Virus record (IMG/VR): IMGVR_UViG_3300030116_002032
Coordinates: 1 to 35,836 of that record
Length of the DNA: 35,836 nt
From: a virus
Direction: 5' to 3' (one strand)
Under the pieces are notes generated by a model, which saw only the letters and a list, made by a program, of their open reading frames with translations, ran no database searches and had not been told where the DNA came from. Positions 13,467-34,804 of this stretch are shown here, piece by piece. Position numbers and translations under genes: made by a program. How positions within the stretch are numbered: position 1 is the first letter of the stretch; every line of letters starts with the position of its first letter.

Positions 13467-13606
13467 TATACTCCTCTCCCTAATAAATATATTATTAGTT
13501 GGTTAAAGTTTTCAGCATGGGTATATAGATATCCCACCATAGCTACACACCAGATAGCTATTATTAATTTAATAATAAATAAAGTTAATCTAAAGGCGAA
13601 GCTCAT
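13466..13606 (-). CDS. 46-aa single-TM miniprotein
   Basis: The frame encodes one membrane segment (LFIIKLIIAIWCVAMVGYLY, about residues 9-28) with a short basic N-terminus and a C-terminus ending LLGRGV. It begins inside the end of the 76-aa gene, after a GAGGTGAAG site, and its stop overlaps the next ATG as TAATG. A small early membrane protein such as this could affect the host envelope or exclude other phages; no family is recognised. Confidence 0.6.
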   Translation of the reverse strand: MSFAFRLTLFIIKLIIAIWCVAMVGYLYTHAENFNQLIIYLLGRGV

Positions 13607-13820
13607 CTTCACCTCCAGTTATTGATTCTTCTATTGCAGTTAATGAAGTTATCTCATTACTCAATAGCTGAGCAACTGCCCATTCAGCTATCATTTTATA
13701 ATCTTGAGTGCTCATTTCTCTTAATGAACTTAAGTCATGCTGTAATTGTAATAGTTCTGAATGATTTAATGATTGGTCATTACTCACCTTATCATTTACA
13801 GCGATAGATAATGCTAACAT
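13590..13820 (-). CDS. Hypothetical 76-aa helical protein
   Basis: A helical, acidic protein (HSELLQLQHDLSSLREMSTQD, AIEESITGGEDELRL). It is the first gene after the promoter at 13839-13867. Its ribosome-binding site (GGAGAAG) lies in the loop of a small ATAAAC/GTTTAT hairpin that directly precedes and includes the start codon, so initiation may be structure-dependent. Confidence 0.6.
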   Translation of the reverse strand: MLALSIAVNDKVSNDQSLNHSELLQLQHDLSSLREMSTQDYKMIAEWAVAQLLSNEITSLTAIEESITGGEDELRL

Positions 13821-13838
13821 AAACTTCTCCGTTTCCTG

Positions 13839-13867
13839 TTTATATCATTTATATTGCACTACTGCAA
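13839..13867 (-). promoter_or_regulatory. Promoter for the main minus-strand operon
   Basis: On the minus strand TTGCAG (13867-13862), a 17-base spacer and TATAAA (13844-13839) form a sigma70-like promoter. Transcription would start near 13832, only about a dozen bases before the ATG at 13820. It lies just downstream of the terminator at 13893-13915, so it restarts transcription for the operon running to 6112. Confidence 0.55.
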
Positions 13868-13892
13868 CATATCATATGCTACAGTAGACATT

Positions 13893-13915
13893 AAAAAAGG
13901 GGGAATAAATCCCCC
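13893..13915 (-). terminator. Rho-independent terminator of the 122-aa gene
   Basis: On the minus strand GGGGG-ATTTATT-CCCCC is followed by six T. The stem has five G-C pairs plus one T-A and a short loop. It sits just after the stop of the gene at 13924, so that gene and its leader form their own transcript. Confidence 0.8.
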
Positions 13916-13923
13916 TAATTTGT

Positions 13924-14289
13924 TTATTTCTTATTGGTGTAACGAGCTATTCGTTTAGATTTTTCTTTAGCTTTTACATTTTCTTGAATTGAAAGTCCTC
14001 TTACCCACTGATATGGTTGGTAACCGAACTCTTTTTCAAAAGCTGTAGTAACTTCAGATGCTATTTTTTCTAGCATTTGAATCTCGTTGTCAGCAGATTC
14101 TAGTTTTGCATTAACACTTGCAGTACCAACATCATTACCTTCAACGGTAGCTAAATCATCTTCTAAACTAGCTTTATATTTAATATTAGTAACTATTAGA
14201 GGTTTAATGGCATTAACAAGTCTTTCAGTAAGAGATTCTCGATTAAAGTCATTTAAACCAGCTAAAGCGTCAATATTTATAAGAGCCAT
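13924..14289 (-). CDS. 122-aa hypothetical protein, first gene of the leftward block
   Basis: The protein (MALINIDALAGLNDFNRE, ending KSKRIARYTNKK) is soluble, helical in its second half (DNEIQMLEKIASEVTTAFEKE) and basic at the C-terminus. The frame is open to 14355, but only the ATG at 14289 has a ribosome-binding site (GGAGA). It has its own promoter (14660-14688) and terminator (13893-13915). The region between promoter and gene is a shortened inverted copy of this same gene and can base-pair with its ribosome-binding site and first codons. I do not recognise the family; its arrangement suggests tight self-regulation. Confidence 0.65.
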   Translation of the reverse strand: MALINIDALAGLNDFNRESLTERLVNAIKPLIVTNIKYKASLEDDLATVEGNDVGTASVNAKLESADNEIQMLEKIASEVTTAFEKEFGYQPYQWVRGLSIQENVKAKEKSKRIARYTNKK

Positions 14290-14292
14290 TTT

Positions 14293-14399
14293 AGTTTTCT
14301 CCGATTTGTTACTTGGGAAGCGAGAACCCATTTCACGCCTTCCAAGGAACGACAAGGCGTTGAAAAGGAACGTCTCGCTTCCAACAAATCGAGAAAACT
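14293..14399. ncRNA. Core hairpin of the inverted repeat
   Basis: The outer stem 14293-14310 pairs with 14383-14399 (17 pairs, one bulge). The middle stem ggaagcgaga (14316-14325) pairs with tctcgcttcc (14373-14382). The inner stem 14331-14341 pairs with 14354-14365 (one bulge). The loop is ccaaggaacgac. On the minus-strand RNA the outer stem buries the Shine-Dalgarno site of the gene starting at 14289. Confidence 0.7.
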
Positions 14400-14656
14400 G
14401 CTCTTATAAATATCGATTTAGCTTAAATGACTTTAATCAGAATCTCTCTGAAATGGTTGTTAATGACAGGGGTGTTGTCCTTTTCCATCAGAAGATGATT
14501 TAGCTTTGTAGACCTTTCATTACCTGAGGTCAGCTTTTGTAAAAGAGTTACTAAAGAAAAATCTAGCTCTACAAATTAGAGGGGATTTATTCTTTATGTG
14601 GTCTACTGACTTTCACACCCAAGCTGTGCTTTCAAGATGTTGTAGTCGTCAGCAAT
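14354..14656. repeat. Right arm: compacted inverted copy of the 122-aa gene
   Basis: Read on the plus strand this arm follows the gene's mRNA sequence with deletions. It keeps the ribosome-binding region, but the start codon is deleted and the frame is broken by a stop soon after. Then come blocks of the coding region, and the terminator-region sequence at 14571-14592. It is not a functional gene copy. It is transcribed leftward as the leader if the promoter at 14660 is active. Confidence 0.75.
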
Positions 14657-14659
14657 TTC

Positions 14660-14688
14660 ATTACACTAAATCTGGTGTGCGTTGACAA
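14660..14688 (-). promoter_or_regulatory. Leftward promoter for the leader and 122-aa gene
   Basis: On the minus strand TTGTCA (14688-14683), a 17-base spacer and TGTAAT (14665-14660) match the sigma70 consensus at 5/6 in each box. The start would be near 14653, exactly where the inverted-repeat right arm begins. Its -35 box overlaps the -35 of the rightward promoter. Confidence 0.6.
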
Positions 14689-14709
14689 GCAAAAATAAAG
14701 GTTTATTAG
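14682..14709 (+). promoter_or_regulatory. Rightward promoter for the terminase/structural block
   Basis: TTGACA (14682-14687), a 16-base spacer and TATTAG (14704-14709) precede the small terminase gene. The -35 is a perfect consensus and overlaps the leftward -35, so the two promoters probably compete. Confidence 0.5.
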
Positions 14710-14721
14710 TATAAGAGATAT

Positions 14722-15102
14722 ATGCCTAATACTCCTACAATTAAGAACTTAACGCATAGACAACGCACACTTGTTGATACTTTAGTATCACAGGATATCA
14801 CCGTAACAAAAGCTGCTGAAATTGCTGGATATGCTAAGGGCGAGAGTGGTAGAGTAGTAGCAAGTAAAACATTACGATTACCTCATGTTCAAGAGTATAT
14901 GATGCAACAAGTAGGGCAACATCTCGCCCTTTCAAGCATATCTTCTGTGAAACGACTACGACATCTTGTTGACCATGCTCGTTCAGAGTATGTACAGCTA
15001 GAAGCTAGTAAGGATATCCTTGATAGAGTAGGATTCAAGCAACCTGATAAGGTTAAACATACTCTGGATGGTGACATAAGTGTCAAGATAGACTTATCTT
15101 AA
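14722..15102 (+). CDS. terS: Terminase small subunit-like protein
   Basis: The 126-aa protein begins with a helix-turn-helix resembling small terminase DNA-binding domains: LTHRQRTLVDTLVSQDITVTKAAEIAGYAKGES, near residues 10-42. A helical oligomerisation region (LSSISSVKRLRHLVDHARSEYVQLEASKDILDRVGF) follows. It would recognise the packaging site and load the large subunit encoded at 16280. The stop codon lies within a strong hairpin (15075-15113). Confidence 0.75.
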   Translation: MPNTPTIKNLTHRQRTLVDTLVSQDITVTKAAEIAGYAKGESGRVVASKTLRLPHVQEYMMQQVGQHLALSSISSVKRLRHLVDHARSEYVQLEASKDILDRVGFKQPDKVKHTLDGDISVKIDLS

Positions 15103-15113
15103 TGACACTTATG
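15075..15113. terminator. Strong hairpin over the terS stop codon
   Basis: cataagtgtc (15075-15084) pairs with gacacttatg (15104-15113), and aagata pairs with tatctt (15085-15090 and 15095-15100) around the loop gact, with an AAT bulge. The 16-pair stem has no T tail. It could attenuate transcription, protect the terS mRNA or be part of a packaging site. A second hairpin, TGACCA/TGGTCA (15112-15129), overlaps it. Confidence 0.5.
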
Positions 15114-15320
15114 ACCACACGCATGGTCAAGGGGGTGTGATTGTTATATAACGCGAGGGGGGTTTAAAAAAAGATATGTTATATATGTTATTGGTCTATC
15201 TCAAGCAATTATAGTCAAAAAGGTTCGATATCGAGAAGTGCGTAGACAAACAGAACAAAATATATTTTACTGCTTGACAGGTTCGGTGATGAGCTTATGT
15301 GGTTTTTGATTAAACGATAA
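15103..15320 (+). other. Intergenic region with clustered palindromes
   Basis: No gene is supported here. Besides the hairpins at its left end it contains the palindromes gttatataac (15143-15152) and tcgatatcga (15225-15234), a G run near 15157-15162 followed by an A run, and a TTGACA near 15275 without a convincing -10. The region could hold a packaging site, origin or regulatory sites. Confidence 0.35.
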
Positions 15321-31900: not shown

Positions 31901-33092
31901 TGATAATGGTATGCTTATATTTAATCATGGATATAGAAGGGCATTTGGTGGAGCAGCAAAACAATTTGTAAGAGGATTAGAAACTAGCAGAAAAGCAAGA
32001 AGACAATTACAAGATGAATATGGTGAAGGATTTGATGTATTATTAGCACAAGCTGGTTCTCGTTTCCAAGAAACAGGTGGAAATATAGTACCAGCAACTA
32101 ATATAATAACAAGAACTTTAAGTGCTATGCAACGACCATTTTATATTGCTAACTTTTTAGGACCACATACAGTTATTGCAAAACAAATGGCAAGTTATAT
32201 AGCAACACAAAGATTATTAAAGAACGCTGTCTTATGGGCAAGAGGAAAACCAGTACCAAAAGATGAAATGGAATTTATGTCAAGATTCTTTGATTTAAAA
32301 TTTGCTAAAGCAATAGAAAGAGAATTTAAGAAAGGAAATATACAAGTAGATAAAAATAATAACTGGTGGGCAAATTCTACTAAATGGTCAGATGATGATT
32401 TATCTTTAGCTTTCCGTTCTTATGTAAATGATTCAGTACATTCAACAGTTATAACTCCAAAGGGAGCTGATAGACCTAACTGGTTTGATGCTAAACTGAC
32501 TATTCCTACATTTACTAGAGATGCAACTGGTAAAATGAATAGAATAGAAATAGATTCTAAACTTGTTACATTACCAGCACAGTTTTTATCTTATGGTATG
32601 TCAGCAACTTCTAAACTTTTAATGGCTGGTATGCAAAGGAGAGATGGAAATGTTTTATCAGGTGTAACTGCACTAATGGCACTTGGTTATTTCTCAGCTT
32701 GGTTAAAAGACCCTTACTTTGAAAAGAAAACATTTACAGAAAATACAATAAGAGCTTTTGAATTAACAGGTATGTTAGGAATTATTAATGATTTGAACAT
32801 ATCTGTAGAAACTTTATCTGCTAATCAATTAGGAGTAAGACCAGCTTTTGGAGCTAGACCTTTGTTTGGTGATACTAATATTGGTGATAGAGTTGGTGAA
32901 CCTTTCGGACCTGGGATTAACTTAATAACAGAAGCAATATGGGCATTTACTTCAGAAGAAGCAAAGAAAGATGATAGAGCTGCGATTGTGCGTAGACTAA
33001 TTCCATGGAACAATTTATTAATTTGGAACAGCTGGTTTAGAGATGCTAGTAAAAATATGTATGGAACAATAGAAGAAAGTATAACTGACTAA
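28929..33092 (+). CDS. Very large internal virion/ejection protein (gp16-like)
   Basis: The 1387-aa protein has a hydrophobic, Gly/Ala-rich segment (about residues 136-220, with [22 protein letters not shown] and [15 protein letters not shown]). The rest is helical and basic ([11 protein letters not shown]). A region near 690-740 is coiled coil. It is the largest gene, in the place of T7 gp16, whose homologues are ejected first and cross the envelope. No lysozyme motif could be recognised. Confidence 0.65.
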
Positions 33093-34804
33093 TGGCACAT
33101 ATAACAATATCAGATAATGCTCCTAGAGTACAGATAACAGGAACTACAAGTGTTGGTCCTCACGCATATAACTTTGAAATATTTGCTGATGCAGATTTAA
33201 AAGTATATATCAATGATACCCTTAAAACTTTAACTACTCATTATACTGTAGCTGGAGCTGGTGAATCAGGTGGTGGTAGTATTACTTTTACTGGTGGTAA
33301 TGCTCCTTCTTCTTCATCAGATGTTATAACTATTCAAAGAGATTTAGCAGTATCAAGAACAACAGATTTTGCTACTTCTGGTAGTTTTCAAATAGATTCT
33401 TTAAATACAGAATTTGATAAACTAACAGCAAAAGTAGCTCAACAAGAATTTAATATTAGGAGAGCTCCTCTACTTAAAGCAACTACAGTAGATGCTAACC
33501 TAGACGAAACATTTCCTGACCCTGTAGCACACAAAGGAATTAAATGGAACAGTTCAGCTAATGCCTTAGAAGCAGTACATTTAGATTTTAGTGCTGCTGT
33601 TTCAACTGTATCTGTAGGTAATCCAGCAACTGCAGCTTTAAATACAACTACTGGAGTTTTTACTTTTGGTATTCCAACTGGAGCAACTGGAGCAACAGGT
33701 TCTACAGGACCTACTGGTCCAAGTGGTCCAACTGGTCCAAGTGGTCCAAGTGGACCGACAGGTTCTACAGGTTCAACTGGACCTGCAGGACCAACAGGAC
33801 CTGCAGGACCGACAGGACCTAGTGGTCCAACAGGACCAACAGGACCAACAGGACCATCAGGTTCTGGTTCTATGACAAACTTTATACTAGAGGATGATTC
33901 TGGTGATGAAGTTACAATATCAGATGGAAAAGAAGTTAAGTTTATTGGCTCTGGTATTACAACAAACTGGACAGATACTGATAATGGTACTGACGCAGAC
34001 CCTTATGATTTAACTTTTACTGTTGATGCAGCTCAAACTGGAATTACTTCCATGTATGCTACTGATTTAATTTTAGGTGAAGATGCAGAAACTGCTATTG
34101 ATTTTGGAACTGCAAATGAAATTGATTTTAAAGCTGATAATGCTGCAAGATTAACATTAACTGCTTCTTCTTTATATCCAGTAACTACTAATCAAATTGA
34201 TTTAGGAACTGCTTCTTATGAATTTAAAGATGCTTTCTTTGATGGCACAGTAACAGCAGATGCTTTTGCTGGACCATTAACTGGTAATGTAACAGGTAAT
34301 GTTTCTGGTACAGCAGCTACTGTTACTGGAGCAGCACAATCTAATATTACTTCTGTTGGAACTTTAACTACTTTATCTGTAGATAATATTACTGTTAATG
34401 GAAATGACATTTCTTCTACAGATACTAATGGAAATATTACTGTAACTACTAATGGCACAGGTAAAATACAATTTAATGATTTAGCTTATATTCCTCAACA
34501 AGCATTAACATCATCATCAAATGCTGTTGCTTGGGATGTTCAAGCTAAACCAAATGCTTATCATCAAACTTCAGAAAATACGACTTTTTCTGCTCCAACA
34601 AATGGTGTTGAAGGAGCTTTTATTTGTTTGGAAATTAATTATAATGGCTCACATACTATTGGGTGGAATACAGTTTTTGAATTTGCTGCTTCAACCGAGC
34701 CAACAGAAACTGCTACTGATGGTAAAACCGATATTCATGTATTCAGATATAATGGTGCTATTTGGCAAGAAGTAGGTAGAACAATGAATTTAAGTGAGAG
34801 TTAA
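33092..34804 (+). CDS. Tail fibre with T7-like N-terminus and collagen-like repeat
   Basis: The 570-aa protein starts with a T7 gp17-type N-terminal domain ([20 protein letters not shown] ... [20 protein letters not shown]), which attaches the fibre to the tail. A collagen-like Gly-x-y repeat follows (about residues 197-259, many GPTGPSGPT units). A beta-rich distal part contains [16 protein letters not shown] and ends in [16 protein letters not shown]. The repeat codons form near-identical 9-base units, so copy number can change. It is the likely host-binding fibre. Confidence 0.85.
33680..33871 (+). repeat. Collagen-like Gly-x-y coding repeat
   Basis: About 21 triplets of Gly-Pro/Ser/Ala-Thr/Ser coded by tandem ggtccaact, ggaccaaca and similar units. 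Such tracts form trimeric stalks and vary in length by slippage or recombination. The reading frame stays intact for any whole-unit change. Confidence 0.85.

What the first reader, a model, noticed from the sequence alone, without database searches (positions are those of the whole stretch)
13852..14656. A gene whose own transcribed leader is a compacted inverted copy of itself
Reading the plus strand, the gap upstream of the 122-aa gene (right arm) matches the reverse complement of the gene, its ribosome-binding site, terminator and flank. Complementary blocks, in strictly colinear reverse order, are: 14383-14399 with 14293-14310 (one bulge); 14400-14413 with 14273-14286 (14 perfect); 14423-14438 with 14241-14256 (16 perfect); 14441-14453 with 14223-14237; 14457-14465 with 14211-14219; 14490-14505 with 14149-14164 (16 perfect); 14532-14549 with 14027-14044 (17 of 18); 14551-14565 with 13956-13970 (15 perfect); 14571-14578 with 13916-13923; 14581-14592 with 13903-13914 (12 perfect); 14601-14608 with 13882-13889. 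The copy is shortened by deletions, yet the kept blocks are almost unmutated. Simple decay would scatter substitutions, so constraint on base-pairing is plausible. A promoter at 14660-14688 would transcribe the copy first and then the gene, so the nascent leader would be antisense to the ribosome-binding site, first codons and body of its own mRNA. Possible roles are translation shut-off, RNase III processing, a dsRNA decoy, or a cis-regulated toxin-like gene. A relic of an inverted duplication remains possible.
Basis: partly seen in the sequence, partly recalled or inferred. Interest (0 to 1): 0.88.

Follow-up and report, generated by a model that had tools for sequence, protein, structure and literature searches.

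The report
Giant self-pairing hairpin beside phage terminase
Many ocean phages related to those of the abundant bacterium Pelagibacter carry, between a fast-evolving small gene and the DNA-packaging gene, a hairpin of roughly 230 to 1,370 bases whose two arms change together base by base, which points to an undescribed, probably RNA-level control element.

Summary
The gap right of the 121-aa leftward gene ('X') is a colinear inverted copy of X; leader plus gene fold with z = -13.9. Loci fetched by homology to the neighbouring small terminase gene (TerS) show the same layout: 47 of 105 sequence clusters have a strong palindrome of about 100-1,370 nt between X and TerS, and 87 of 105 fold far better than shuffles. 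Sequences differ wholly between lineages, but the pairing is kept: 124 double changes against 35 expected in 25 close pairs; 43 of 64 consensus pairs with compensatory change; native arms pair better than swapped arms. It is therefore neither a relic nor an assembly chimera. Best reading: a selected rod-shaped RNA, most likely TerS-sense and antisense to X's start region, controlling X. Constraint on pairing is shown; RNA nature, strand, promoter and role are inferred. X is a helical-hairpin protein of unknown function in a hypervariable cassette. No Rfam family and no described system found here matches.

The parts
13882..14608 (.). whole rod-like hairpin: base pairs CAGTAGAC / GTCTACTG at its two ends, apex near 14345
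13882..14312 (.). left arm: contains gene X, its terminator and its ribosome-binding site
14380..14608 (.). right arm: non-coding compact inverted copy of the left arm; 92-96% identical in the two nearest relatives
13924..14289 (-). gene X, 121 aa, predicted all-helical hairpin; no Pfam or PDB match, only sub-threshold PHROG hits
14299..14302 (-). GGAG ribosome-binding site of X, inside the stem
   Evidence: sequence; structure
14293..14399 (.). apical domain: covarying stem (GGAAGCGAGA/TCTCGCTTCC here, GCGAACAG/CTGTTCGC in relatives) around the conserved plus-strand loop sequence GAACCCATTT ... AAAAGGAACGTC
13898..13916 (-). intrinsic terminator of X, also part of the base of the stem (the right arm could act as an antiterminator in a leftward transcript)
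13848..13875 (+). weak promoter-like site (TTTATA-16-TATCAT) whose start would fall at 13882, the first base of the rod; such sites are not above chance
   Evidence: not enriched in relatives
13859..13887 (.). dyad CTACTGcaACATATcATATGctACAGTAG at the left base of the rod, operator-like
   Evidence: sequence
   Evidence: sequence; not enriched in relatives
14682..14687 (+). TTGACA (in GTGCGTTGACA), -35 element of the rightward TerS promoter; NTTGACA present in 87 of 105 relatives against 4.4 expected
14722..15102 (+). small terminase subunit TerS, the neighbour used to fetch relatives

Best explanation
The locus is a conserved rod-like hairpin element that sits between the hypervariable leftward gene X and the TerS promoter in Hodr-like pelagiphages and their relatives. 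SHOWN (by sequence): the two arms are kept complementary base by base while the sequence of X and of the rod turns over; the stem covers the X start region, typically about 50-80 nt beyond the X start codon and in some phages the whole of X. INFERRED: the element acts as a folded RNA, most likely transcribed in the TerS direction, so that its 5' arm is antisense to the ribosome-binding site and first codons of X. INFERRED: it controls X as an extremely long, self-paired countertranscript, either by capturing X mRNA into double-stranded RNA or by making X mRNA itself a rod when the locus is transcribed leftward; both exclude ribosomes and invite RNase III. Because X and its rod are exchanged and diversified as one cassette, each rod matches only its own X.
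For: Palindrome upstream of TerS in 47 of 105 clusters at >60 bits against a shuffled maximum of 42.5; 87 of 105 clusters fold with z < -4, including loci without a blastn palindrome such as L104, L107 and L100. Compensation: 12-sequence plus-strand alignment, 43 of 64 pairs changed on both sides, covariation 0.481 against 0.227 shuffled, 0/500; 25 close pairs, 124 double changes against 34.8 expected, 94 restoring Watson-Crick pairs; L012 against L243, 14 double changes against 2.0 expected, 12 still paired, spread from X codon 36 to just past the stop codon. Arm-swap test: interaction -124 with own X against -6 to -15 in the swaps involving L012; -69 against -32 to -44 for the L003 leader with the other long X arms. 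Mismatches equally frequent at codon positions 1, 2, 3 (0.19/0.20/0.17), so the copy does not lag behind synonymous drift. Plus-strand signature: lower energy in 34/36, G.U 263 against A.C 61 in the coding stem, single-side changes G.U 81 against A.C 52 on strand-neutral pairs, alifold -40.1 (64 pairs) against -25.1 (38 pairs). Extra synonymous constraint in X codons 1-15.
Against: No sigma-70-like promoter for a plus-strand rod RNA is enriched at the left base, inside X or beyond its stop, so how it would be made is unknown. The plus-strand bias is partly a general shortage of C at mismatched positions (quasi-independence fit), which stable G-containing mismatches in single-stranded DNA would also give. 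The window itself shows no strand preference. In six scored clusters the detected hairpin ends short of the X start codon. No expression or functional data exist. The stems carry about 18-27% non-Watson-Crick columns, so it is not obvious why single pairs are compensated so often.
Confidence: 0.45

Rival explanations
1. Leader reading of the first reader: X is transcribed leftward from just left of TerS, its own 5' leader (right arm) pairs with its ribosome-binding site and body, and this shuts off translation, triggers RNase III cleavage or, in the window clade, also masks the X terminator.
For: A writable minus-strand promoter at 14688-14660; in many relatives the right base of the hairpin lies about 25-34 nt from the TTGTCA/TTGACA motif, where such a promoter would start; the minus strand of the window folds with z = -13.9.
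Against: Leftward promoter signal is absent across relatives (mean z 0.02 against 2.05 for the rightward one); the minus strand is the weaker folder and carries A.C instead of G.U; in the Hodr clade the hairpin runs over the TerS promoter and up to TerS.
Confidence: 0.2
2. No selection on pairing: the arms are homogenised by a mutational mechanism, template switching or repair within a quasi-palindrome (as described in PMC8604942 and PMC7202029).
For: The mechanism is known to extend identity between inverted arms; double changes are mildly clustered (183 runs against 237 expected).
Against: Of 129 blocks of double changes 102 are single base pairs and none exceeds 4, and in L012/L243 they are interleaved with uncompensated changes. 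The G.U/A.C asymmetry is not predicted. Persistence at one genome position across unrelated sequences calls for a function.
Confidence: 0.15
3. The plus strand acts as folded single-stranded DNA, for instance in replication, packaging initiation near TerS, or as a single-strand promoter like Frpo of the F plasmid or the N4 hairpin promoters.
For: Plus-strand preference; G-containing mismatches (G.T, G.A, G.G) all enriched over their complements; no conventional promoter found for X.
Against: In the aligned clade G.U clearly leads the non-Watson-Crick cells (81 G.U, 24 A.G, 12 A.C), as expected for RNA; no promoter hexamers above chance lie in the leader.
Confidence: 0.13
4. Relic of a recent inverted duplication, or an assembly chimera.
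For: The right arm is a shortened copy with large deletions.
Against: Present in dozens of independent assemblies and in the complete isolate genome of Hodr; compensatory changes; equal mismatch rates at the three codon positions.
Confidence: 0.02

Closest known systems
Countertranscribed antisense RNAs (CopA/CopT of IncFII plasmids, OOP RNA of phage lambda; the latter in PMC5869508, review PMC5415839)
   Same: A strand opposite to a small regulated gene, complementary to its translation start, folded, sequence-specific to its own target; hypervariable between relatives as in plasmid incompatibility (from general knowledge).
   Different: Known ones are short (roughly 70-100 nt, from general knowledge) with their own promoter and terminator; here the antisense arm is joined to a full-length complement of itself, the rod reaches 1.37 kb, and no promoter is recognisable.
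Obelisks and delta-like agents (PMC11922315, PMC13096302)
   Same: Rod-like RNA structure of about 1 kb with a protein coded on one arm.
   Different: Those are RNA replicons; here the rod is part of a dsDNA phage genome, the protein lies on the strand opposite to the better-folding one, and no Rfam ribozyme is found.
Large structured phage RNAs GOLLD and ROOL (PMC12286853)
   Same: Large, conserved, structured non-coding RNA in phages.
   Different: Different architecture (large ornate RNAs forming homo-oligomers, not a rod over a gene); no Rfam match here.
Quasi-palindromes homogenised by template switching (PMC8604942, PMC7202029)
   Same: Imperfect inverted repeats whose arms evolve in concert.
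   Different: Mostly single base-pair compensations, interleaved with uncompensated changes; strand-biased G.U tolerance; fixed genomic place.
phi29 packaging RNA
   Same: Structured RNA encoded near packaging functions (from general knowledge).
   Different: No Rfam match; these phages have an ordinary TerS/TerL; no evidence that the rod meets the terminase.

Membership tests
cis-antisense (countertranscribed) RNA regulator | complementary to the translation initiation region of a target gene on the other strand | tested here: met
   X ribosome-binding site and start codon lie in the left arm in the window; in 38 of 44 scored clusters the hairpin runs past the X start codon, typically by 50-80 nt
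cis-antisense (countertranscribed) RNA regulator | folded on the strand antisense to the target | tested here: met
   plus strand more stable in 34/36 hairpins and G.U-rich; in the window itself neutral
cis-antisense (countertranscribed) RNA regulator | own promoter transcribing the antisense strand | tested here: inconclusive
   no enrichment of sigma-70-like sites at the left base, inside X or beyond its stop; one weak site in the window at 13848-13875
cis-antisense (countertranscribed) RNA regulator | changes expression of the target | not testable with these tools
   needs expression assays
Obelisk / delta-like rod RNA | rod-like fold with an ORF on one arm | tested here: met
Obelisk / delta-like rod RNA | autonomous circular RNA with self-cleaving ribozyme | tested here: not met
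   part of a phage DNA genome; no ribozyme family in Rfam up to E = 10 in 13500-15200 of the window nor up to E = 0.1 in nine related loci
GOLLD / ROOL / OLE or phi29 pRNA | match to the covariance model | tested here: not met
template-switch homogenised quasi-palindrome | multi-nucleotide tracts copied from one arm to the other | tested here: not met
   102 of 129 double-change blocks are single pairs, maximum 4; mild clustering remains
toxin-antitoxin (type I) or other known phage gene | X resembles a known toxin or phage protein family | tested here: not met
   no significant Pfam or PHROG family for X of the window; relatives also without a convincing family; PADLOC and NCBIfam not searched; fold searches with the model of a relative's X gave nothing at E <= 0.001

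The most novel reading that the evidence does not exclude
A new class of phage regulatory element: a rod-shaped RNA of several hundred nucleotides, one arm of which is the antisense of a protein gene, held complementary by selection through full sequence turnover, so that gene and rod form a self-specific, hypervariable cassette (for example one that silences X of an incoming phage of the same type and thereby sets superinfection groups, as antisense RNAs set plasmid incompatibility).
Probability: 0.22. Interest if true: 0.93.

Novelty: categorically new. Interest (0 to 1): 0.8.

Why it matters
Hodr-type phages infect Pelagibacter, among the most numerous bacteria in the sea, and their genomes are annotated almost entirely as hypothetical. 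A hairpin of up to 1.37 kb kept at one position in most of the loci sampled, with base pairs exchanged one by one over distances of several hundred bases and through the coding region of a gene, is an extreme case of RNA or DNA structure constraining a protein gene. It makes two questions directly testable: what maintains very long imperfect palindromes, selection or copying, and whether phages use self-matched double-stranded RNA to control an early gene or to exclude their own kind.

Tried and rejected
Relic of inverted duplication and assembly chimera: rejected by replication in many independent loci and by compensation. Known RNA family: no Rfam match. Known protein: X has no convincing match in PHROGs, Pfam or PDB sequences, nor by fold; a weak fold resemblance to T4 UvsY (E about 0.8) is not evidence. 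Third-position drift of a lagging copy: rejected. Codon-usage bias as sole cause of the plus-strand G excess: fourfold sites of X do favour C on the gene strand, which may contribute, but the right arm is G-rich at mismatches too. Nesting depth of the MFE fold as a detector: not discriminating. Promoter at hairpin bases by consensus: nothing above chance except the TerS promoter. A protein alignment of X relatives was too diverse for a search of bacterial genomes. Literature: no paper found on such an element in pelagiphages, with the limit that only open PMC papers are searched.

Full report
1. Observation. The eleven complementary blocks exist at the stated coordinates in colinear reverse order. 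Read leftward, 13870-14660 folds to -277.4 kcal/mol against -162.7 +/- 8.3 for shuffles (z = -13.9). The structure is a rod: CAGTAGAC (13882-13889) pairs with GTCTACTG (14601-14608) at the base and the apex lies near 14345; the left arm holds the terminator, coding region, start codon and ribosome-binding site of a 121-aa gene ('X', 14289 to 13924). A scan of the whole 35.8-kb record finds nothing else like it. The record is a phage: portal (head-to-tail connector), terminase and recombination genes match known families, and its closest named relative is Pelagibacter phage EXVC031P Hodr, 73% identical over the aligned 27% of a 7-kb query.

2. Spread. Four other contigs code a close X (87% and 63% identity). 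Taking the neighbouring small terminase gene (TerS) as bait, independent of the finding, gave about 200 loci, which reduce to 105 clusters of upstream sequence. Of these, 47 have a strong self-palindrome (more than 60 bits; the best of 105 shuffled controls reached 42.5) directly upstream of TerS; their span runs from about 100 to 1,370 nt, mostly 230 nt and more. By energy, 87 of 105 fold with z < -4; loci missed by the palindrome search, such as L104, L107 and L100, are in fact near-continuous rods. The common layout is: a leftward X-type gene whose start lies in the left arm (in 38 of 44 scored clusters the hairpin runs past the X start codon, typically by 50-80 nt), a non-coding right arm, a rightward TTGACA promoter (NTTGACA in 87 of 105 against 4.4 expected), then TerS. 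In the window, L012, L066, L207, L233 and L120 the rod swallows all or nearly all of X.

3. The pairing is under constraint. (a) RNAalifold on 12 plus-strand rods: 64 pairs, 43 with changes on both sides; covariation score 0.481 against 0.227 +/- 0.015 in shuffles (0/500) and 0.08-0.13 when slid. (b) In 25 close pairs of loci (one pair of contigs is counted twice under different ids), 124 base pairs changed on both sides against 34.8 expected from the single-arm rates, 94 of them back to Watson-Crick. (c) L012 against L243, 88% identical: of 18 changes in the left arm, 12 are matched by the partner in the right arm several hundred bases away, at all three codon positions from codon 36 to just past the stop codon, many changing the amino acid. 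(d) Arm swaps within the window clade: the L012 leader gains 124 kcal/mol with its own X and 6-9 with any other; the L003 leader 69 against 32-44 with the window, L001 and L002 arms; window, L001 and L002 are interchangeable. (e) Mismatch rates at codon positions 1, 2 and 3 are equal (0.186, 0.195, 0.171); a decaying copy of a gene under protein selection would lag at position 3. (f) Codons 1-15 of X keep their synonymous codon more often (0.67-0.76) than codons 51 onward (mostly 0.48-0.63). The relic and chimera readings are therefore out.

4. Which strand, and RNA or DNA. Counting mismatches without treating G.U as a pair, the strand that points toward TerS has far more G.T than A.C: 306 against 131 over all stems, 263 against 61 in the part that codes X, 38 of 47 clusters with G.T in excess and 6 the reverse. 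That strand is also the more stable in 34 of 36 hairpins, by up to 115 kcal/mol, and gives the better consensus fold (-40.1 with 64 pairs against -25.1 with 38). On pairs chosen neutrally from both strands, single changes lead to G.U 81 times and to A.C 52 times. Two cautions: part of the asymmetry is a general lack of C at mismatched positions, which stable mismatches in single-stranded DNA would also give; and the window itself shows no preference.

5. Promoters. Across relatives the only sigma-70-like signal above chance is the rightward one before TerS (mean z 2.05), which in most phages lies just right of the hairpin and in the Hodr clade inside its right arm. Neither a leftward promoter for X nor a rightward promoter for the rod is enriched (mean z between -0.11 and 0.02). 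How the rod is transcribed is the main gap.

6. X and its cassette. X is predicted as an all-helical hairpin protein (window X mean pLDDT 82; a relative, L069, 88) with no recognisable family or fold (the fold searches used the L069 model). It is hypervariable: window and L012 are 92-98% identical on the TerS side while their X proteins share about 35%; conversely window and L001 share 98% of the N-terminal half of X and 92% of the right arm while their TerS-side flank is only 80% identical. Gene and rod therefore appear to travel and diversify as one unit.

7. Mechanism. What is shown is constraint on pairing at the nucleotide level, in a fixed place, over complete sequence turnover. The best-supported inference is a folded RNA, most likely TerS-sense, whose 5' arm is antisense to the start region of X and which controls X through double-stranded RNA (about 0.45).

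8. Comparison. It works most like a countertranscribed antisense RNA, but the defining own promoter was not found and regulation is untested, so membership is not claimed. It resembles Obelisks in being a rod with an ORF on one arm, without the ribozymes or the RNA-replicon state. No Rfam family matches and no paper describing it was found in the open literature searched.

Noticed in passing
14672-14687 and 14760-14772: GGTGTGCGTTGACA before TerS has an inverted near-copy GACAACGCACAC just inside TerS; operator- or packaging-site-like pair, also visible in L003/L004.
   Followed up: partly
relatives, e.g. L045, L069, L090 just before TerS: A run GGGGGGGAACACAAGGGGGGG directly follows the TTGACA promoter in many relatives (about where transcription would start); absent in the window clade.
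   Followed up: partly
L069, L091, L065, L082 between hairpin and TTGACA: About 200 extra bases with a second conserved, apparently structured motif (AACGTCCG ... CGCAACGGCC).
   Followed up: no
13859-13887: 29-bp dyad at the left base of the rod, between X and the next leftward gene, overlapping a possible leftward promoter for that gene.
   Followed up: no
window against L001/L002: X differs mostly by amino-acid changes in its C-terminal half (dN/dS 0.8 and 2.0 by a simple count over a few sites) while its N-terminal half is nearly identical at the DNA level.
   Followed up: partly
33092-34804: Tail-fibre-like protein with a collagen-like GPTGPSG repeat stretch.
   Followed up: no
OQ414635 (Hodr): The locus tags in the Hodr record carry the name of another phage (EXVC032PBaldr).
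   Followed up: no
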